A stretch of 64,000 nt of DNA from Stutzerimonas balearica DSM 6083 (lineage in GTDB: Bacteria; Pseudomonadota; Gammaproteobacteria; Pseudomonadales; Pseudomonadaceae). Within the stretch, counting starts at the first letter, position 1. Each line of letters opens with the position of its first letter. The notes under the pieces are model-generated. The model made no database searches and was not told the origin of the DNA. It saw only the letters and a list, made by a program, of their open reading frames with translations. A program made the translations under genes and the position numbers. Location: the NCBI RefSeq assembly GCF_000818015.1, contig NZ_CP007511.1, positions 2,156,001-2,220,000 of the forward strand, in the 5' to 3' direction. This document shows, in pieces, positions 7,853 through 20,626 of this stretch.

Positions 7853-9169
7853 ATGCTTGGCCGTGCCAGCTGGAACGACAGCTTGATGCAGCGATACGGG
7901 CAGACGCGCCAGGCGACCTGCTGGTATCCCGGCCCCGGCGATCTGCGCGACCGCCTCTCCCCACTGGATCTGTTCCGCGCGCTGCGTGACAGTCGTCGTG
8001 CTCAGCGCCCGCTGGCGCTGTCGATCGAGGTCGATGACCTCGCCGGCGTCGTGCAGCAAACCCGGCAGATCGCCTGCCATCTTGGCCCGCGGCAACCCGT
8101 GGTGCAGCTCAGGTTGCGCCCCGGGCGCCTTGGCCTCGGTGCGCTGCCCGAACTGCTTGCGCATCTGCGCGACTGTTTCCACTTCTCCGAGCACGCCGTC
8201 TGCCTGGCCGAGGTGGAACTGGCGCATGCCGACTGGCCGCTGGTGGGCATGCTGCGCTCGCTTGGCTTCAGCCAGCTGAGCGTCGGTGTGCCTGACATGC
8301 ATGCCGGTGACGGCGGCTCGGTCGAGTATTTCCGCAGCGCCGCGCGCATCCGCGGCCTGCTCGAAGCCGCACGCGCCCTGCAGTTCGAGGCAATCAACGT
8401 CGACCTGGGCTACGGCCGCTCCTGGCAGACCGGCAGCAGCTTCGCGCGCAAGCTGGCCTCGATCATCGAACTCCAGCCCGATCGCGTCAGCCTGTTCGAC
8501 TACCGCTCACTGAGCATCGCCGGGCGCCTGCCCTCGCCCCGCCTGGGCCTGGCTTCACGCAGCGCCGCCCGGGACATGCATCGCCACGGCGTGGAGCAGC
8601 TGACAGCGGCCGGCTATCGCCTGCTCGGGCTGGGCTGCTTCGTGCTGCCGCATGACGAGCTCGCGCTGGCGCAGGAGAACGAGAGCCTGCGGCATGACGT
8701 GGCGGGCTACAGCACGACACCGGAAGGTACCGACCATCTGTCCCTCGGCGTCGGCGCCATCAGCCGCCTGGGCGACTGCTACGTGCAGTGCCTGCAGCAG
8801 CCGGCACGCTACCGCGAGGCGCTGCAGCAGGATCTGCTGCCGGTCTGGCGCGGCCTGCACGCCGCCCATGTCGACGGCTTGCGCCGGGCGATCTGCCAGG
8901 GCCTGATCTGCCAGGGGCGGCTCGATCTGCAGGCGCTGGACGCACGCTTCGGCGCCCAGGCGCAGCGATGGTTCGCAGCCACATGGCCGTTGCTGCGGCA
9001 GTTGCAGCGCGAGACCGTGCTCGAACTTTCGTCGCATGGCCTGATGCTGGCACCGGAGCACCAGCTGCTGCTACCGGGCCTCTGCGAAGCCCTCGTGCAG
9101 CCCCTGATTCCTGGCCTGGCCGCGCAGCCGAAACCGGACCAGCCGCGTCGTTGCGGTACCCACCGATAG
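7853..9169 (+). CDS. HemN-like protein lacking the radical-SAM cysteine motif
   Basis: The 438-aa product resembles oxygen-independent coproporphyrinogen III oxidase over most of its length: SVGVPDMHAG, LEAARALQFEAINVDLGYG, SFARKLASIIELQPDRVSLF, AGYRLLGLGCFVLPHDELA, LSLGVGAISRLGDCYVQ and a HemN-type C-terminus. HemN enzymes bind a [4Fe-4S] cluster through CxxxCxxC just after a YVHIPFC-like strand. Here the matching stretch (about residues 58-80, LSIEVDDLAGVVQQTRQ) has no such cysteines, and the RYTSYPTA-like N-terminal motif is degraded. It is unlikely to be a functional coproporphyrinogen oxidase; a haem-binding, regulatory or scaffold role is possible. The ATG has CCGGAGG upstream. No frameshift is seen. 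Confidence 0.8.
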   Translation: MLGRASWNDSLMQRYGQTRQATCWYPGPGDLRDRLSPLDLFRALRDSRRAQRPLALSIEVDDLAGVVQQTRQIACHLGPRQPVVQLRLRPGRLGLGALPELLAHLRDCFHFSEHAVCLAEVELAHADWPLVGMLRSLGFSQLSVGVPDMHAGDGGSVEYFRSAARIRGLLEAARALQFEAINVDLGYGRSWQTGSSFARKLASIIELQPDRVSLFDYRSLSIAGRLPSPRLGLASRSAARDMHRHGVEQLTAAGYRLLGLGCFVLPHDELALAQENESLRHDVAGYSTTPEGTDHLSLGVGAISRLGDCYVQCLQQPARYREALQQDLLPVWRGLHAAHVDGLRRAICQGLICQGRLDLQALDARFGAQAQRWFAATWPLLRQLQRETVLELSSHGLMLAPEHQLLLPGLCEALVQPLIPGLAAQPKPDQPRRCGTHR

Positions 9170-12099: not shown

Positions 12100-13131
12100 T
12101 CAGTTGCCCGCGACCTTGTCGCGGTCGTCCACTTGCAGCTGCGAGGCCAGAGCCAGCGAGAACTGCTGGGCGGCGCTCCAGCGCAGGTGGATCGCATCGA
12201 CGAAGCCGTCTTCCGGTGCCGACCATTCACGGTCGGCGTTCCAGTAGCGCCCGTCGGTACCCGCCAGTGCCTGCTCCAGGCGCCTGTCGAAGCCGCGAAC
12301 GAAGCTGCCGTCCGGGTCATAGGTCGATTTCCAGTCCGGATGCAGCGGGGTGGAGACGACCAGCAGCTTGCGCCCTTCGCTCTCTAGCCGCCCGGCCAGC
12401 CCGGCGAGCGCCTTGAAGCAGCCCGCATCCAGCGCCTCGGGCTTGCCGTAGAACAGCCCGCGGTCACCCTGCGGCTCGAGCGGCCCATCGCCGAAACGAC
12501 TGAACACCAGCGGGTCCCACTCGATCAGGTTGGCACGCTGGTCCTTGACCGTCAGCGAGTTGCGCAGCAGCGAGCGCGGGTCGAAGTACCGCAGGTAATA
12601 GGCCCAAGGCGAGACCTGGCCGTAGACGTAGGCATCGGCGTCCTGCCGATTGAAGACCGCATCCGGTACGCGCCAGCAGCCTGCGAAATCGATCGGATCG
12701 ACCACCATCACGACCAGGCGAATGGTCGGCTCGCGGTCGAGCAGCCAGTTGGCGACGTATGCGCTCTGGTTCGCGTGCAGGCCGCAGAAACCCGCATTCA
12801 GCGGTTGTGTTGCCAGCGACTGGGCCTTGAACACGCTGCTGTCGACGTGGCGCCAGGCGACCGACGAACCGACTACCAGCAGATCGGGTGCATAAACCGG
12901 GCGCTCACGCAGAAAGCTCAACTTCTCGTCCACGCACAGGCTGTTGGAAAACGCCGGTGGCGGCAGGTTGCCGGTGTTGTTCAGCAGCGCCAGCAGCAGC
13001 GCAAAACCGCCCAGCGCGCCCAGCGCGCCGGCAATCAGCGCTCCCAGGTAGCTGGCCGGTATGCCCGATGCGGCGCCCTGCGCCGGTTGTGCGACCCCCT
13101 TTCCCTTGGGAACCTCGGCGGCGCTTGCCAT
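12100..13131 (-). CDS. SGNH-type membrane-anchored acyltransferase/hydrolase partner of the MBOAT unit
   Basis: A 343-aa protein with one N-terminal membrane helix (about 27-52) and a periplasmic domain. Features resembling SGNH/AlgX/AlgJ-like proteins are VVGSSVAWRHVDSS (nucleophile candidate S89/S90) and DAIHL near the C-terminus (Asp-x-x-His dyad). It is the last gene of the minus-strand unit MBOAT, FkbH-like, carrier protein, SGNH, and starts 3 nt after the carrier protein stop. In alginate- and Dlt-type systems the equivalent protein completes acyl transfer to the glycan outside the cytoplasmic membrane; that role is inferred here. Confidence 0.75.
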   Translation of the reverse strand: MASAAEVPKGKGVAQPAQGAASGIPASYLGALIAGALGALGGFALLLALLNNTGNLPPPAFSNSLCVDEKLSFLRERPVYAPDLLVVGSSVAWRHVDSSVFKAQSLATQPLNAGFCGLHANQSAYVANWLLDREPTIRLVVMVVDPIDFAGCWRVPDAVFNRQDADAYVYGQVSPWAYYLRYFDPRSLLRNSLTVKDQRANLIEWDPLVFSRFGDGPLEPQGDRGLFYGKPEALDAGCFKALAGLAGRLESEGRKLLVVSTPLHPDWKSTYDPDGSFVRGFDRRLEQALAGTDGRYWNADREWSAPEDGFVDAIHLRWSAAQQFSLALASQLQVDDRDKVAGN

Positions 13132-13134
13132 GAT

Positions 13135-13383
13135 TTACCCCCTGTCGAGCTTGGCGCGGATCAGTTCGGCGAAGTGGCCGACGTTCTTCAGTGACTCGAG
13201 CTCGGCGGTGCGGAACTTGACGCCGAAGCGCTGCTCGGCGGCCACGATCAGCAGCACATGCGTCTGGCTGTCCCAGCCGTCGATGTCGTTTGCCGTGGTG
13301 TCGGGTGTGAGCACGATGTCGTCGTCATCGAACACGTCGCGAAACACCTCGGTAAGCGCGTTGAGAATGTCCTTTTCGTTCAT
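13135..13383 (-). CDS. Acyl carrier protein
   Basis: An 82-aa helical carrier protein. GWDSQTHV contains the Ser (S39) expected to carry 4'-phosphopantetheine; the usual DSL/DSM is replaced by DSQ. It is too divergent to be the fatty-acid AcpP. Its ATG overlaps the FkbH-like stop by 4 nt, so the two are translationally coupled, as expected if the FkbH-like enzyme loads this carrier. Its position beside an MBOAT gene is reminiscent of DltC. Confidence 0.9.
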   Translation of the reverse strand: MNEKDILNALTEVFRDVFDDDDIVLTPDTTANDIDGWDSQTHVLLIVAAEQRFGVKFRTAELESLKNVGHFAELIRAKLDRG

Positions 13384-15284
13384 GCCTGCACCTCGATGAA
13401 ATGGCGGGGTTGAATCGACTCGGCCAGCGAAAGGCGCCAGAAGGTGGCGTCATCGCCGGCACCGAGTGGGTGGGGATGCGACGCGAAGCCGAGCCGCGGG
13501 TAGTGTTCGGCGACCATGCCGTTGCGTTCGGCGGGCCGGTATTCACCGACCAGCGCCGCGTAGCCACGCGCGCGCGCGGCCTCGGCGAGCACCTGCAACA
13601 CGGCCTCCTCGACCTGCCGGCCGAGTACCCGGCAGCTCATCAGCCAGCTGTCGATCAACAGCTCGTCAGCGGCCAGCGCCTCGTGCGGAGCGGCCAGCAC
13701 GACGCTGATCAGGCCGTTGTCGCCGAACTTGTCGCGCAGGCGGATCGCCAGCGTTACCGCCGCCGGATCTTCGGCCAGGCGCTGCACTTCGGCTTCGCCG
13801 TAGCGCCGGGTGGTGAGGTTGAACTGGTTGGTCTTGTTCACCAGCTGAGTCGCGCGCGCCAGCTCGGCCGGGCCGATGGATGTGGCGGTGAGGACCATTT
13901 CCAGGCCGCGCAGGTAACCCTCCATGTCGGTGGCCTGGTTCAGCGCCTGCTTGCGTTCGGCGTTGGCGGCGTAACTCTGCGCCCGCGCCGAATCGTCCGC
14001 GGTGAACGACACCGCCTCGAAATAGCCGGCCGCGGCAATCCGCGCCGGGTAGTCGGCGACATCGTCGGGCAGCTCCGGCACCGCCACTTCGGGCAACTCG
14101 CGGCGCACGATGTCGCGCTCGGCGGGGTTGTCGTCGACGAAGACCAGGCTGTCCAGACCGATGTCGAGCATTGCGGCGATGCGTCTGAGGTTGCCGGCCT
14201 TGTCTTCCCAGTTGGCGACGAAGGCCGCGATGTCGCGGCGTCGGAGCGCCATTTCCACGTGCTCGAAGGCGGCTTCGGCGACGTGCGCATCGTTCTTGCT
14301 GCACACGGCAAGAATCACCCCGCGCTGGGCGAGCAGCGCCGCGTAGCGCTGAAACGCGACATAGGCTTCGCCGCTCGGGCTGCCGGCGCCGAGCTTGATG
14401 CCCTCCAGGCCATCATCGCCGATCACGCCGCCCCACAAGGTGTTGTCCAGGTCGAGCACCAGGCATTTGCGCGAAAGCCCGACGCTGGCCGCAGCCACCC
14501 GCGCCAGATGGTCGCCATACAGCGGCGCCATTTCCGGGCTGACCAGCTGCTTGGCCTGATGCCAGCGCGCCGGGTCGGCCAGGCCGTTGCCGTAGCTGCC
14601 GTCGGCCGCGTGCCAGGCCAGATCGAGCAGCAGCACGCCCTCTTCCCGCGCGGCCATGCGAATCGCCTCGTTCAGCCGCTGCACCAGGGCAAATGGCGCG
14701 GCGGGGACCTGCGCCTCGAACGAGCCGAACAGCGGCGGATCGACCGGTACCAGCGTCTGCTGCACCACCTGCGCGGCGAAGCGTTCATGCGCCCGGCGCC
14801 ACAGGCCGCGCAGCTCGTCAACCCGCGCGGCGATCGCCGCGTCGACCTCCTCGCGGCCGCTGGTCAGCGGCAGTTGCAGCGGCGCATCGCGCGCATCCAG
14901 CGCCAGCACCACCAGCTGGGGCGCGAAATCGGCCAGTTGCGGGTCGTCGAGCAGCAGCGCCTGCCGGTAGAGGCCATAGGGTGTGACGAACAGGGAAAGC
15001 GCCAGCCGCCGCTGCAGCCCGGCCACGCGAATCGCCGGCAGCAGGTGATCGACGGTGTGCGACGACAGCAAGGCGATGCGCAGCGGCGTGAAGCCCTGTG
15101 GCGCCGGCCCCTGCAGGCCCGCGGCGGCGAGCCGGTCGAGCTTGGCCGTCTGGGTGAAATCGCGGCGGTAGCCGGCCAGCCGCGCGGCCTGCTGCAACCG
15201 CGCGAGGGGGTCGGTTTCCTGTTTGGCTTGGCTGATCGCAGCGCCCATATCGGCGTGCGGCGGTAACCAGAGCAGCTGTTCCAT
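13380..15284 (-). CDS. FkbH-like HAD-IIIC enzyme (acyl/glyceryl loading of a carrier protein)
   Basis: A 634-aa three-part protein: an N-terminal SGNH-like region (about 65-260), a HAD phosphatase domain of subfamily IIIC with DLDNTLWGG (D278, D280 region), VCSKND and FVDDNPAER, and a C-terminal GNAT-like region (VNKTNQFNLTTRRY through RPAERNGMV). In polyketide pathways FkbH-family enzymes convert 1,3-bisphosphoglycerate to glyceryl-S-carrier protein. Here the immediate neighbours are a carrier protein, an MBOAT acyltransferase and an SGNH protein, not a polyketide synthase, so the product probably feeds glycan or surface modification. The acyl group (glyceryl or other) is inferred. Confidence 0.85.
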   Translation of the reverse strand: MEQLLWLPPHADMGAAISQAKQETDPLARLQQAARLAGYRRDFTQTAKLDRLAAAGLQGPAPQGFTPLRIALLSSHTVDHLLPAIRVAGLQRRLALSLFVTPYGLYRQALLLDDPQLADFAPQLVVLALDARDAPLQLPLTSGREEVDAAIAARVDELRGLWRRAHERFAAQVVQQTLVPVDPPLFGSFEAQVPAAPFALVQRLNEAIRMAAREEGVLLLDLAWHAADGSYGNGLADPARWHQAKQLVSPEMAPLYGDHLARVAAASVGLSRKCLVLDLDNTLWGGVIGDDGLEGIKLGAGSPSGEAYVAFQRYAALLAQRGVILAVCSKNDAHVAEAAFEHVEMALRRRDIAAFVANWEDKAGNLRRIAAMLDIGLDSLVFVDDNPAERDIVRRELPEVAVPELPDDVADYPARIAAAGYFEAVSFTADDSARAQSYAANAERKQALNQATDMEGYLRGLEMVLTATSIGPAELARATQLVNKTNQFNLTTRRYGEAEVQRLAEDPAAVTLAIRLRDKFGDNGLISVVLAAPHEALAADELLIDSWLMSCRVLGRQVEEAVLQVLAEAARARGYAALVGEYRPAERNGMVAEHYPRLGFASHPHPLGAGDDATFWRLSLAESIQPRHFIEVQA

Positions 15285-15317
15285 GCGAGCTCCTGTAGGG
15301 GTGGCTGAAGCCAGTCG

Positions 15318-16856
15318 TCAGAACTGGAAGTAGAGAAACTCGGTCGGCGCAACCGAAAAGGCGATCGCCAGGCCGAAGAAGCCGAGCACCCCGACCGCTA
15401 CGCCAATGGCCGGTGCCGGGCGCCACCAGGCAGCCGGCACCAGACGTTCGAGCCAGTGGCCCTCGGCGCGGAAGTTCAGCGCCGTGCGGAAGTGGCCCAT
15501 CCACTGCTCGACGTTCGGCATGCTCCAGACGAACAGCAGCAGCGCGCCGATCATGGCGAAGTCCGAGCGGTCCATCCGGGTGGTTTCCGGGCTGAGCCCG
15601 AGCATGCCGCTGAGCACGGCGAGCGCGGCCGGCACATCTGCCGAGCGGAAGAACACCATGGCGACCACCACGCAGCCAAAGGTCAACAGCACCGCAACGA
15701 CCTGATGCAGCGGGTTGTCGCTATCGACCTTCCAGCCCTGGCGCACCTTGTAGGCGCGCCAGCCATGCGCGACCACCAGGTAAAAGCCGTGCAGCAGGCC
15801 GAACACCACGAATTGCCAGCCTGCGCCATGCCAGACGCCGGAGACGAACATGGTGAACACCGTCGGGTAGGCGACCAGTGCGAGAAAGGTGCCGAGGGTC
15901 ATCTTGCCCCGCCGCGGCTGTGGCTTGCCGGCGGCCATGCGCGCGCGCGTCACTCGCAGCACGATGGGGTTGTAGATATAGGCGGTCAGGAAGCGCGTCA
16001 GCGTCATGTGCCAGCGCGACCAGTATTCGATGACGTTGCGTGCCTTGAACGGGCTGTTGAAATTCATCGGCAGGCGCACGCCGAACAGCAGCGCCAGGCC
16101 GATGGCCATGTCGCTGTAGCCGGAAAAGTCGAAGTAGATCTGCAGCGTGTAGGTCAGCGCCCCGGTCCAGGCATCGTAGAACGATGGAATCGCGCCGCTG
16201 GCCGCCACCTCGAAGATGGGAGTCGCCTTTTGCCCGAGCGTATCGGCGATCGCCACCTTCTTGAACAGCCCGAGCAGAAACACCGTGGCGCCCAGCGCGA
16301 TGAAATCGACCCGCGGGCGGAAGGTGGTGCGATTGTTGAACTGCTCGAGCATCTCGCCGTGGTGGGTGATGGGGCCGGCGATCAGCTGCGGGAAGAAGGT
16401 GATGAACAGGCAGTAGTTGACGAAGTCATGCTCCTGCACCTCGCCATCGTGTGCGTCGACCAGGTAGGCGATCTGCTGGAAGGTGAAGAAGGAAATGGCC
16501 AGCGGCAGGAGGATGTCCTCGATCTGCCAGCTGAATTCGAACACCGAATCCAGCGTGCCGAAGAGAAAGCCGGTGTACTTGAAATAGCCGAGCAGCAGTA
16601 CGTTGGCCGCCACACCGAACACCAGCACCGCACGCGACGGCCGGCGTACCAGAAAGCCGCCGAGCAGGTAGTTGAAGACCAGGCTTGCGCCCAGCAAGGG
16701 CACGTACAGCGGGTTCCACCAGCCGTAGAACACCAGCGAGGCGAGCACCAGCCACACCGCCGCCGCACGCTGCCGTCCGCTGCCGGCCAGGAGAATGAAG
16801 CCGAGAAGCACGATCGGCAGGAACACGCCGATGAACACTGCAGAATTGAAGAGCAT
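15318..16856 (-). CDS. MBOAT-family membrane O-acyltransferase (AlgI/DltB-like)
   Basis: A 512-aa polytopic membrane protein with more than ten hydrophobic segments. It has the MBOAT signatures FDFSGYSDMAIG, EYWSRWHMTLTRFL and the invariant His in SGVWHGAGW. Members move acyl groups across or onto cell-envelope polymers. ATG 16856 with AGGA upstream is preferred; an in-frame extension to 16967 has no membrane character and no ribosome site. It is the first gene of the four-gene unit. The FkbH-like gene starts 33 nt after its stop. Confidence 0.92.
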   Translation of the reverse strand: MLFNSAVFIGVFLPIVLLGFILLAGSGRQRAAAVWLVLASLVFYGWWNPLYVPLLGASLVFNYLLGGFLVRRPSRAVLVFGVAANVLLLGYFKYTGFLFGTLDSVFEFSWQIEDILLPLAISFFTFQQIAYLVDAHDGEVQEHDFVNYCLFITFFPQLIAGPITHHGEMLEQFNNRTTFRPRVDFIALGATVFLLGLFKKVAIADTLGQKATPIFEVAASGAIPSFYDAWTGALTYTLQIYFDFSGYSDMAIGLALLFGVRLPMNFNSPFKARNVIEYWSRWHMTLTRFLTAYIYNPIVLRVTRARMAAGKPQPRRGKMTLGTFLALVAYPTVFTMFVSGVWHGAGWQFVVFGLLHGFYLVVAHGWRAYKVRQGWKVDSDNPLHQVVAVLLTFGCVVVAMVFFRSADVPAALAVLSGMLGLSPETTRMDRSDFAMIGALLLFVWSMPNVEQWMGHFRTALNFRAEGHWLERLVPAAWWRPAPAIGVAVGVLGFFGLAIAFSVAPTEFLYFQF

Positions 16857-17391: not shown

Positions 17392-17521
17392 GTCACCAAG
17401 CGCCTCTGCCCTGCTCCGCTGGCCAATCGCCTGCGCCGTTCCGTTCGTCTAGCGGTACAAACGCCGCGCCGCCGAACGGCTAGGCTTGTCGTTAGATTCA
17501 CAGACAGCCAGGCACGGTGAA

Positions 17522-20500
17522 ATGGGCGCAGTATGGCGGTCCTCCACTTCGGCGGAAGGGCGTTCGACACGCGCTCCTGAGCCCTCTTCAGATTCGGACA
17601 AACGGCGCAGGCGCCGCCGGCGGACTGCACGGCGGCTCGGCTGGTCGCTCGGGCTGTTTCTGCTCGTGGCGTTCGCTTACGCCGGTTGGCACGAGATGCA
17701 GACCTCGAAGATCCAGGCCCGCTGGCTCAGCCGTTACGCCGCGACGCTGACCTATGCCCTCGAGCCGGGGCCGAGCGACGCCATTCGCTTCCCCGAAGAA
17801 GGACCGTTCGACCGCCGCCTCGGCTACGTCGCCCTGCCCGATCACATCGCCCGGCTGACCGAGCGCGGCTACGAGGTCCAGGCCCAGGCGCGCTTTTCGC
17901 CCGCCCTGCTGAACTACGCCGACCACGGCTTCTTCGTGCCCTATGCCGAGCGATCGCAGGTTGGCCTGACGATCCACGACTGTCGCGGCGAACCCTTGTA
18001 CGCCAACCGCTACCCGCACCAGTTCTACGCCCGCTTCGAAGACATTCCCCCGCTTGTCTCGCTCAGCCTGCTGTTCATCGAAGACCGCGGCCTGCTCGAT
18101 CTGCAGCGGCCACATGCCAACCCCGCCGTCGATTGGCCGCGTTTCTCCAAGGCCGCGCTGAGCCAGCTGGAGAGCGGCCTCGGCCTGCCCGGACAGGCCG
18201 CCGGCGGTTCCACGCTCGCCACCCAGGTCGAGAAATATCGCCATTCGCCCGAGGGCCGCACCGGCGACCCGCAGGAAAAGCTGCGGCAGATGGTCTCGGC
18301 CAGTGTGCGCGCCTACCTGGACGGCCCGCTGACACTGGCGGCGCGCCAGCGCATCCTGCGTGACTACCTCAACAGCGTGCCGCTGTCGGCGGCACCGGGG
18401 CATGGCGAAATCCATGGCATTGCCGATGGCCTGCGTGTCTGGTTCGGCGCCGATTTCGACGAGGTCAATCGTCTGCTCGCCTCGAGCCAGGCGGAGGATG
18501 ACGCGGCGCGCGGGCTCGCGCTGCGCCAGGTACTCTCGCTGCTGATCGCCCAGCGCCGGCCTTCTTACTATCTCGGCGCCGGCCGGGAGGAACTCGCCGG
18601 CCTGGCCGACAGCCATTTGCGCCTGCTCGCCGGGGGCGGCGTGATCGATACCGCCTTGCGCGACACGGCGCTGCGTCAGCAGGTGAGCTTTCGTGATATG
18701 GACCGTGAACCGGCGATCCGCCCGGTGGAAGCCAGCAAGGGCATCAGCGTGGCGCGCACGCGCCTGGCCGGTCTGCTGAACCTGCCGCTCTATGACCTGG
18801 ATCGGCTCGACCTCACGGCGACCACGCCGTTGCAGGGGGCGCTGCAGGAGCAGATCAGCGACTACCTGCTGAAACTGGCCGATCCGGCCTTCGCCGAGCA
18901 GGTCGGGTTGTTTGGCGATCGCATGCTCTCGCCGGAGAAAACCGCCGACGTACGCTACAGCTTCACCTTGTTCGAGCGTGCCGGAGGGGGCTTCCGCGTA
19001 CGCGTGCAGACCGACAACACCAATCAGCCGTTCGACATCAACGAGGGCAGCAAGCTGGAGCTGGGCTCCACTGCCAAGCTGCGCGTGCTGACCACCTATC
19101 TCGAGGTGATCGCCGAGCTGCACGCGCGTTACGCCAGCCTGAGCAGCGCCGAACTGCGCGCGACGCAGACTCGCACCACGCTCGGTCGCTGGGCCGTCGC
19201 CTACCTGGCGCAGACCAGCGACCGTAGCCTGGCGAGGATGCTCGATGCGGCGATGGAGCGGCGCTATTCGGCGAGCCCGGCCGAGCGCTTCTTTACCGGC
19301 GCCGGCCTGCACCACTTCAACAACTTCCGCCGGGAAGACGACCACCGCATCCCGACGGTACGCGAGGCCCTGCGCGAATCGATCAACCTGCCCTTCGTGC
19401 GGCTGATGCGCGACCTGGTGAATTTCAGCACCTACGAAGAGATCAACAGCGCCGAACTGCTGAAGAACGACAAGGACCCGCGCCGGCTGGAATACCTGAC
19501 GCGCTTCGCCGACCGCGAAGGCTCGGTGTTCCTCCAGCGGTTCTGGCGCAAGTACCGCGGGCAGAGCGAGCGCGAGCGCATCGAGACCTTTCTGCAGGGC
19601 ATGCGACCCACGCCGGTACGCCTCGCGGCGGTGCACCGCTACCTCATGCCCGACGCCGACCGCACGACCTTTGCGGCATTCCTGGCCAACCGGCTGCCGG
19701 AGGCCAGGCTCAGCGAGAAGAAGCTCGACGAGCTCTATACCCGCTATGGCCCCGGCCAGTTCAGCCTGCCGGACCAGGCCTACATCGCCCGCACGCACCC
19801 GCTCGATCTCTGGCTGCTCGGCTACCTGACGGCACACCCGGAGGCGAGCCTGTCCGAGGTGGTTGCCGCCAGTCGCGCCGAACGCCAGGAGGTCTACGGT
19901 TGGCTGTTCCGCAGCCGGCACAAGAGCGCTCGCGACAGCCGCATCCGCATCATGCTCGAGGTCGAAGCCTGCACCGACATCCATCGCCGCTGGCAGCGCC
20001 TGGGCTACCCCTTCGGCAGCCTGGTGCCCTCCCTGGCCACCGCGCTGGGCAGCTCGGGTGACCGTCCGGCTGCACTGGCCGAGCTGATGGGCATCATCCT
20101 CAACGATGGCGTGCGGCTGCCGAGCGTGCGGATCGACAGTCTGGACTTCGCTGCGCAGACGCCCTACGAAACCCGCTTGCGCCTGGCCGGTGGCGCCGGC
20201 GAGCGCGTGCTGCCCAGCGAAGTCGCCGCTACCCTGCGCGAAGCCCTGGCGCTGGTGGTCGAGGGAGGAACGGCGCGGCGCCTGCAGGGCACCTTTGTGC
20301 GCGAGGATGGCAGCACGCTGCCGGTCGGCGGCAAGACCGGTACCGGCGACAACCGCATCGACACGGTCGGCGCCGGTGGCCGGTTGATCAGCTCGCTGGC
20401 GATGAACCGCACCGCGACCTTCGTGTTCTACCTGGGCCCCGATCACTTCGGTACCCTCACGGCCTACGTGCCTGGCCGGGCAGCAGACAGCTTCCGCTTC

Positions 20501-20626
20501 ACCTCGGCGCTGCCGGTGCAGGTGCTCAAGGGCATGGCGCCGATCCTGGCGCCCTACCTCGCCAATGGCGCACACACCCGGTGCACGCCGCGCCTGCAGA
20601 TGGCGGAGGCCGCGACCGCTCGCTAG
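17522..20626 (+). CDS. Class A penicillin-binding protein-like transglycosylase/transpeptidase
   Basis: A large (about 1034 aa) inner-membrane protein: a basic N-terminus (RRRRRRR), one TM segment (LGWSLGLFLLVAFAYAGW), a GT51 glycosyltransferase region with LLFIEDRGLLD (catalytic Glu) and GGSTLATQVEKY, and a transpeptidase domain with STAK (S516, K519 counted from 17522), SIN and KTGTGDN motifs. The second glycosyltransferase motif departs from the common GGSTITQQ. There is a long insertion between the SIN and KTG boxes (about 250 residues). The product is about 200 aa longer than PBP1A/1B. The start is uncertain: ATG 17522 or TTG 17486. Confidence 0.85.
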   Translation: MGAVWRSSTSAEGRSTRAPEPSSDSDKRRRRRRRTARRLGWSLGLFLLVAFAYAGWHEMQTSKIQARWLSRYAATLTYALEPGPSDAIRFPEEGPFDRRLGYVALPDHIARLTERGYEVQAQARFSPALLNYADHGFFVPYAERSQVGLTIHDCRGEPLYANRYPHQFYARFEDIPPLVSLSLLFIEDRGLLDLQRPHANPAVDWPRFSKAALSQLESGLGLPGQAAGGSTLATQVEKYRHSPEGRTGDPQEKLRQMVSASVRAYLDGPLTLAARQRILRDYLNSVPLSAAPGHGEIHGIADGLRVWFGADFDEVNRLLASSQAEDDAARGLALRQVLSLLIAQRRPSYYLGAGREELAGLADSHLRLLAGGGVIDTALRDTALRQQVSFRDMDREPAIRPVEASKGISVARTRLAGLLNLPLYDLDRLDLTATTPLQGALQEQISDYLLKLADPAFAEQVGLFGDRMLSPEKTADVRYSFTLFERAGGGFRVRVQTDNTNQPFDINEGSKLELGSTAKLRVLTTYLEVIAELHARYASLSSAELRATQTRTTLGRWAVAYLAQTSDRSLARMLDAAMERRYSASPAERFFTGAGLHHFNNFRREDDHRIPTVREALRESINLPFVRLMRDLVNFSTYEEINSAELLKNDKDPRRLEYLTRFADREGSVFLQRFWRKYRGQSERERIETFLQGMRPTPVRLAAVHRYLMPDADRTTFAAFLANRLPEARLSEKKLDELYTRYGPGQFSLPDQAYIARTHPLDLWLLGYLTAHPEASLSEVVAASRAERQEVYGWLFRSRHKSARDSRIRIMLEVEACTDIHRRWQRLGYPFGSLVPSLATALGSSGDRPAALAELMGIILNDGVRLPSVRIDSLDFAAQTPYETRLRLAGGAGERVLPSEVAATLREALALVVEGGTARRLQGTFVREDGSTLPVGGKTGTGDNRIDTVGAGGRLISSLAMNRTATFVFYLGPDHFGTLTAYVPGRAADSFRFTSALPVQVLKGMAPILAPYLANGAHTRCTPRLQMAEAATAR

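What the first reader, a model, noticed from the sequence alone, without database searches (positions are those of the whole stretch)
12100..16856. Dlt-like four-gene unit in which an FkbH-like enzyme replaces the adenylation enzyme
Gene content mirrors the D-alanylation system: MBOAT (DltB-like), carrier protein (DltC-like), membrane-anchored SGNH protein (DltD-like). The charging enzyme is not DltA but an FkbH-like HAD-IIIC protein of the type that makes glyceryl-S-carrier protein from 1,3-bisphosphoglycerate. Tight spacing (33 nt, 4-nt overlap, 3 nt) shows a coupled operon. This suggests transfer of a glyceryl or related hydroxyacyl group to a surface glycan, which I do not know to be described.
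Basis: inference. Interest (0 to 1): 0.8.

Follow-up and report, generated by a model that had tools for sequence, protein, structure and literature searches.

The report
Sugar-coat acylation operon charged by glycolysis
Four neighbouring bacterial genes look like a machine that takes a small acid from sugar breakdown, loads it on a carrier protein and passes it across the membrane onto a surface sugar polymer; the export parts are known elsewhere, but this way of loading them seems to be a new combination.

Summary
Window 16856-12100 (minus strand) is a tight four-gene unit: MBOAT, FkbH-like enzyme, carrier protein, membrane-anchored SGNH protein. The host is probably Stutzerimonas balearica. 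The four genes occur together in 39 of the 80 best related loci (3 more are cut by contig ends). Of 63 FkbH-linked MBOATs, 54 end in this motif; 8 of the other 9 have a separate DltX-like one-helix ORF ending in YxxF; the ninth is cut off. So a tyrosine relay beside a carrier is conserved in two architectures, in several phyla. The SGNH protein models as an SGNH fold (DltD is Foldseek's top match); the FkbH model is SGNH-like + HAD + GNAT with invariant catalytic residues. Best explanation: FkbH loads glyceryl from 1,3-bisphosphoglycerate on the carrier; MBOAT, tyrosine and SGNH pass it to a surface glycan. The route is supported by sequence only; acyl group and acceptor are inferred. A 2025 paper states that non-Dlt MBOAT/SGNH pathways lack a carrier; this unit goes against that. 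New variant of a known kind.

The parts
15318..16856 (-). MBOAT membrane O-acyltransferase, 512 aa (gene 1 of the unit)
   Evidence: PF03062 3.9e-25; DltB model 191.1 bits, below cut-off 375; DltB structures 6bug/8jem E about 1e-31; His283 and His343 conserved in 64 of 64 aligned MBOATs (numbering checked)
15321..15338 (-). C-terminal acyl-shuttle hexapeptide F507-L-Y509-F-Q-F512 (FXYXXF); Tyr509 (codon 15330-15332) predicted acyl carrier
   Evidence: motif and role from PMC12148441; DltX motif FLYFGF in PMC11035591
13380..15284 (-). FkbH-like enzyme, 634 aa: SGNH-like N domain, HAD-IIIC phosphatase domain, GNAT-fold C domain; predicted acyl-carrier charging enzyme
   Evidence: TIGR01686 292.3 bits over cut-off; model pLDDT 90.9; 3slr 2.5e-30 then GNAT folds; D278, D280, K330, D384, D385, C551 invariant in 43 sequences
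13135..13383 (-). Acyl carrier protein, 82 aa, phosphopantetheine Ser39 (codon 13267-13269)
   Evidence: PF00550; Ser39 in 78 of 78 aligned carriers; closest solved relative 2lml, 83.9 bits
12100..13131 (-). Membrane-anchored SGNH protein, 343 aa, helix 26-52 then SGNH domain; G88-S89-S90 and D312-x-x-H315

Best explanation
A carrier-charged MBOAT-SGNH acylation system for a cell-surface glycan. (1) Inferred: the FkbH-like enzyme takes the glyceryl group of 1,3-bisphosphoglycerate, removes phosphate with its HAD domain and loads glyceryl on the phosphopantetheine of the carrier, probably through Cys551 of the GNAT-fold domain. (2) Inferred from architecture: the MBOAT moves the acyl group from the cytoplasmic carrier to Tyr509 of its own C-terminal FXYXXF motif on the outer side of the inner membrane. 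(3) Inferred: the SGNH protein takes it on its active-site Ser and transfers it to a glycan hydroxyl (EPS or LPS), giving a glycerate ester. Shown here: gene linkage, conserved catalytic residues, modelled folds and the conserved tyrosine motif. Not shown: acyl identity and acceptor. About 0.65 for the route; about 0.5 for unmodified glyceryl.
For: Four genes together in 39 of the 80 best loci (of 182 relatives found), 3 more cut by contig ends. An MBOAT lies within 4.5 kb of FkbH in 63 of 80 loci. 54 of 63 MBOATs end exactly in F.Y..F; 8 of the other 9 have a separate 39-61 aa one-helix ORF ending Y..F; the ninth is cut. Of 6417 small plus-strand ORFs in 81 loci, 63 pass motif plus hydrophobicity: 54 are MBOAT C-termini, 8 are these small ORFs, 1 (L079) is neither. 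FkbH catalytic columns invariant in 43 rows, carrier Ser in 78 of 78, MBOAT His in 64 of 64. Only MBOAT and FkbH match in the genome; no DltA over cut-off. In a Rhodobacteraceae plasmid the order is carrier, HAD-IIIC, MBOAT ending FIYFNF, a protein with GSS, VOC. [quoted passage not shown] MaoC and SDR genes both sit near FkbH-carrier-MBOAT in 10 of 22 loci outside the window clade and in 0 of 42 inside it, so no such tailoring pair is linked here.
Against: No biochemistry. No glycan biosynthesis genes directly flank the unit in this window. 17 of 80 FkbH loci show no MBOAT match (some of these loci are short or cut, and distant MBOATs could be missed), so FkbH-carrier pairs probably serve other ends too. 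The FkbH donor could be a different acyl phosphate. A tailoring enzyme encoded elsewhere could alter the glyceryl group. The only relevant glycan report from the genus that I met names lactyl rhamnose, not glyceryl (PMC7026135, passage).
Confidence: 0.62

Rival explanations
1. Same relay, different acyl group: glyceryl-carrier is reduced, dehydrated or methylated by enzymes encoded elsewhere, so that lactyl, methylglyceryl or another hydroxyacyl group is transferred.
For: MaoC plus SDR, fused or separate, accompany FkbH-carrier-MBOAT in 10 of 22 loci outside the window clade (Pfam on members); in bryostatin assembly an FkbH-fed module is thought to make lactyl (recalled; one search found no paper). 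An EPS of a Pseudomonas stutzeri strain is reported with lactyl rhamnose (PMC7026135 and PMC4432689, passages).
Against: None of the 42 window-clade loci has both MaoC and SDR near the unit.
Confidence: 0.2
2. Ordinary O-acetylation: MBOAT and SGNH use acetyl-CoA like PatAB or AlgIJX, and the FkbH-carrier pair makes a separate metabolite.
For: The MBOAT has the C-terminal shuttle of the acetyl-CoA systems, and several of the 120 listed relatives are named AlgI in public sources.
Against: Linkage kept across rearranged gene orders and several phyla; FkbH and carrier lie between MBOAT and SGNH genes in the 39 complete loci. In the genus the 7 genomes without the SGNH gene also lack FkbH, and 6 of them lack any MBOAT match.
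Confidence: 0.1
3. The acceptor is not a polysaccharide but a periplasmic protein, a lipid or a small molecule.
For: No glycan genes directly beside the unit in the window; MBOATs also acylate proteins and lipids (established knowledge).
Against: SGNH partner resembling DltD and PatB, and glycan genes beside some relatives: an RmlD cluster in 4 and a GT4 cluster in 6 of the 39 loci compared (Pfam on two and one members).
Confidence: 0.08

Closest known systems
Dlt D-alanylation of teichoic acids (DltABCDX)
   Same: Carrier protein, MBOAT, tyrosine shuttle motif, membrane-anchored SGNH protein
   Different: No DltA; FkbH-like enzyme in its place; shuttle fused to the MBOAT instead of a DltX microprotein (separate small ORFs of that kind do occur in 8 distant FkbH loci); Gram-negative host
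PatAB peptidoglycan O-acetylation and AlgIJX-type MBOAT-SGNH pairs
   Same: MBOAT with C-terminal FXYXXF and conserved His, SGNH partner (PMC12148441)
   Different: Those are described as lacking a carrier, evidently because they use acyl-CoA; here a carrier and its likely charging enzyme are part of the operon
FkbH glyceryl-ACP synthases of polyketide pathways (tetronates, methoxymalonyl-ACP)
   Same: FkbH-like enzyme next to a free-standing carrier (PMC7489565)
   Different: No polyketide synthase, FabH-like, dehydrogenase or methyltransferase gene in the unit; acyl group seems destined for export
Campylobacter jejuni dimethylglyceric acid on flagellar pseudaminic acid
   Same: An fkbH-domain gene (cj1302) is compared among strains in the flagellar glycan context, and a glyceric-acid-decorated sugar is made (PMC7099621, passages)
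   Different: The tested gene for that group there is cj1295; that cj1302 charges it is my guess. No MBOAT/SGNH export route known to me
Aminoacyl-tRNA-synthetase-like carrier-charging systems
   Same: A carrier charged outside the DltA family, predicted in print to feed modification of a cell-surface sugar (PMC2922099, passages)
   Different: Charging enzyme, predicted amide linkage and ligase differ; no MBOAT/SGNH relay mentioned in the passages I saw

Membership tests
Dlt D-alanylation system | DltA adenylation enzyme | tested here: not met
   No TIGR01734 match over cut-off in the genome; best of 13 is 209.6 of 559.85 bits; none in the unit
Dlt D-alanylation system | DltB of the equivalog family | tested here: not met
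   TIGR04091 191.1 bits against cut-off 375
Dlt D-alanylation system | DltX microprotein | tested here: not met
   Motif is fused to the MBOAT C-terminus
Dlt D-alanylation system | DltD-like SGNH protein | tested here: inconclusive
   No family hit; Foldseek top match DltD 3bma E 4.7e-5 but TM 0.39/0.35; profile match to DltD 6pfx E 0.049
MBOAT-SGNH acyl-shuttle systems (PatAB type) | MBOAT with C-terminal FXYXXF and conserved His | tested here: met
   FLYFQF; His343 64 of 64
MBOAT-SGNH acyl-shuttle systems (PatAB type) | SGNH partner with Ser, Asp, His | tested here: met
   Fold; G88-S89-S90 and D312xxH315 invariant in 70 rows; geometry of the triad not measured
MBOAT-SGNH acyl-shuttle systems (PatAB type) | Acyl-CoA as donor, no carrier protein | not testable with these tools
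   Donor needs biochemistry; a carrier gene is present in the operon
FkbH glyceryl-ACP synthase family | FkbH domain over curated cut-off | tested here: met
   TIGR01686 292.3 bits against 146.65; Pfam FkbH_N 25 bits is just under its cut-off of 27
FkbH glyceryl-ACP synthase family | HAD Asp pair and C-terminal acyltransferase domain with conserved Cys | tested here: met
   D278, D280, C551 invariant in 43 rows; GNAT folds in the model search. Role of the Cys is recalled
FkbH glyceryl-ACP synthase family | Loads glyceryl from 1,3-bisphosphoglycerate on a carrier | not testable with these tools
   Needs the in-vitro assay
Methoxymalonyl-ACP pathway | Two dehydrogenases and an O-methyltransferase beside FkbH and carrier | tested here: not met
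   None among the four genes or the neighbours scanned on either side

The most novel reading that the evidence does not exclude
Bacteria of several phyla own a general class of cell-envelope acylation, parallel to Dlt, that is charged by a glycolytic acyl phosphate instead of ATP: FkbH plus carrier makes a hydroxyacyl thioester (glyceryl, or lactyl where MaoC and SDR are added), and an MBOAT hands it to a tyrosine shuttle, either fused to the MBOAT or on a separate DltX-like microprotein, for SGNH transfer to surface glycans. It could be the missing genetic basis of glycerate (and some lactate) esters on exopolysaccharides.
Probability: 0.5. Interest if true: 0.82.

Novelty: new variant of a known kind. 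Interest (0 to 1): 0.72.

Why it matters
Glyceryl groups on exopolysaccharides have been known since gellan (Kuo 1986, as cited in PMC4432689, passages), and I know of no described charging and transfer route (one search found none in the held library); this four-gene unit is a concrete candidate that can be tested in one operon. It also goes against the statement in PMC12148441 that MBOAT-SGNH pathways other than Dlt lack a carrier protein, and points to DltX-like microproteins outside D-alanylation. A charge taken from 1,3-bisphosphoglycerate would tie surface decoration directly to glycolytic flux.

Tried and rejected

Led nowhere: consensus promoter scan found 0 promoters and 4 terminator-like sites against 3.5 expected. 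Paper searches for gellan glyceryl acyltransferase genes, FkbH-like plus glyceryl plus polysaccharide and bryostatin/FkbH/lactate gave nothing useful. FkbH plus MBOAT gave two natural-product papers, seen as listings only; FkbH plus saccharide plus carrier protein gave 7 listings, of which I read passages of one; glyceryl/MBOAT/ACP/SGNH gave 4 listings, of which I read passages of one. Subscription papers are mostly not held, so these absences are weak. The DltX mechanism paper (Nat Microbiol 2023) is not held. A DNA comparison with plasmids gave 73 records, none covering 80% of the unit; I opened three, of which one has carrier, HAD-IIIC and MBOAT together, one carrier and HAD-IIIC with a methyltransferase and VOC, and one an MBOAT without either nearby.

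Full report
WHAT IS THERE. On the minus strand of the window, 16856 to 12100, lie four genes in the order MBOAT (512 aa), FkbH-like (634 aa), acyl carrier (82 aa), SGNH (343 aa), separated by 33 nt, overlapping by 4 nt, and separated by 3 nt. Pfam and NCBIfam place the first three; the fourth has no hit in those libraries at 0.01, although a precomputed PF27429 label appears on many listed relatives. The nearest database entry to the SGNH protein, 99% identical, is named Stutzerimonas balearica, so that is the likely host. In the genome (4.38 Mb, one contig) I found one MBOAT match, one FkbH-like match and no DltA over the curated cut-off (13 weaker matches, best 209.6 of 559.85 bits).

CONSERVATION. 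A scan of genome contigs with the FkbH-like protein found 182 relatives and kept the best 80. All four proteins are found in 39 of these 80; L037 and L045 (MBOAT and FkbH only) and L041 (no MBOAT) lie at contig ends. By record title these 42 loci are Stutzerimonas, Pseudomonas, Halopseudomonas and, among Alphaproteobacteria, Roseomonas, Belnapia, Siccirubricoccus, Craurococcus and Acetobacter. In the 39, the FkbH-carrier overlap is 4 nt in 34, and the carrier-SGNH distance lies between -8 and +7 in 36 (the other values partly reflect choice of start codon). An FkbH tree of 59 rows (22 of 81 left out: 18 near-copies and 4 incomplete) joins the window with these groups at 100/99 support; the mix of Alpha- and Gammaproteobacteria suggests transfer between them. 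L071 is labelled 'no MBOAT' in that tree although it has an MBOAT cut by the contig end. In the genus, 35 of 56 genomes have the FkbH-like gene, 50 of 56 an MBOAT match (49 close, one at 33% identity) and 49 of 56 the SGNH gene. In the 14 genomes with MBOAT and SGNH but no FkbH match, the fetched loci contain long stretches that read N (15 of 15 loci), so FkbH cannot be scored there; the 7 genomes without SGNH also lack FkbH. Some genomes hold two full-length copies (G001, G022, G037).

THE TYROSINE SHUTTLE. The MBOAT ends in FLYFQF. PMC12148441 (abstract and passages) reports that PatA acylates the Tyr of a C-terminal FXYXXF motif, that PatB accepts the group from an acetylated peptide, and that DltX carries the same motif in the Dlt system; PMC11035591 (passages) gives FLYFGF for DltX. 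An MBOAT match lies within 4.5 kb of FkbH in 63 of 80 loci, and 54 of 63 end exactly in F.Y..F. Of the other nine, L071 is cut; the eight others (L056, L058, L063, L065, L070, L072, L075, L077) have a separate ORF of 39-61 aa with one hydrophobic stretch ending in YxxF. In five of them (L058, L065, L070, L072, L077) it starts within 80 nt after a DltB-sized MBOAT of 391-411 aa; in L063 it is 439 nt away; L075 may be a frameshifted fused form; in L056 the MBOAT match itself is a fragment and the small ORF lies upstream. As a control, 6417 small ORFs on the plus strand of 81 loci contained 63 with motif and hydrophobicity: 54 are MBOAT C-termini, 8 these small ORFs, 1 (L079) neither. I set the motif and the threshold after seeing the first examples, so this is a specificity check, not an independent test. 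The shuttle motif is thus present in both known architectures, fused and separate, in FkbH-linked systems.

WHICH ACYL GROUP. [quoted passage not shown] direct assays of such enzymes are recalled). The four-gene clade has no linked MaoC/SDR pair: both near FkbH in 0 of 42 loci (single hits in L008, L011, L042, and a VOC hit in L033). Outside it, 10 of 22 loci with an MBOAT have both, fused in one protein or separate; L073 has SDR only (Pfam on members). Four of those ten supplied the profiles. Such a pair could turn glyceryl into lactyl, by analogy with bryostatin (recalled). Exopolysaccharides with glyceryl (gellan) and lactyl groups are known (PMC4432689, passages), the lactyl reference being a Pseudomonas stutzeri strain, described elsewhere as containing lactyl rhamnose (PMC7026135, passage); whether that is an ester I could not see. 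I therefore rate plain glyceryl at about 0.5.

THE ACCEPTOR. The window offers no glycan genes directly beside the unit. In the 39 complete loci compared by clustering of mechanically chosen ORFs (so these are lower bounds), an RmlD cluster (dTDP-rhamnose) flanks it in 4, a GT4 glycosyltransferase cluster in 6, and an LpxR-like outer membrane protein in 7; Pfam was run on two, one and one members. A Rhodobacteraceae plasmid has carrier, HAD-IIIC, MBOAT ending FIYFNF, a 358-residue protein with GSS (not family-tested) and VOC genes, with sulfotransferase and glycosyltransferase genes within 10 kb. This favours a surface polysaccharide but does not name it.

KNOWN OR NEW. [quoted passage not shown] The unit here has both the fused shuttle and a carrier with its own likely charging enzyme. 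Full-text searches for FkbH with MBOAT, FkbH with saccharide and carrier protein and glyceryl/MBOAT/ACP/SGNH listed no title or abstract that describes such a system, in a library that lacks most subscription papers. I file it as a new variant of MBOAT-SGNH acylation: it should work like Dlt, but is not a member of Dlt by the tests above.

Noticed in passing
L058 5291-5464, L063 12588-12761, L065 4519-4668, L070 11329-11457, L072 12231-12350, L077 11222-11359: DltX-like small ORFs (one hydrophobic stretch, C-terminal LYxxF) beside short MBOATs in FkbH loci: DltX-type shuttles outside D-alanylation.
   Followed up: partly
L043 12996-14522, L054 6565-7995, L066 5726-6897, L080 6104-6532 and 9258-10007: MaoC dehydratase and SDR, fused or separate, beside FkbH-carrier-MBOAT; might turn glyceryl-carrier into lactyl-carrier.
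   Followed up: partly
L051, L053, L061, L062, L067, L069: FkbH and carrier with an ORF matching both MaoC and SDR profiles but no MBOAT match nearby: perhaps another use of the same acyl-carrier chemistry.
   Followed up: no
window 7853-9169: HemN-like protein below the hemN cut-off (175.3 of 324.95 bits) with only HemN_C matched in Pfam and no radical SAM domain hit; possibly a degenerate HemN relative.
   Followed up: no
window 17486-20626: Large (1046 aa) penicillin-binding-protein-like ORF with a transglycosylase domain and weak transpeptidase match, divergent from the unit; a 72% relative also flanks the unit in L006.
   Followed up: no
L009 11293-12276 and six further loci: LpxR-like outer membrane protein gene downstream of the SGNH gene in 7 of 39 compared loci.
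   Followed up: no
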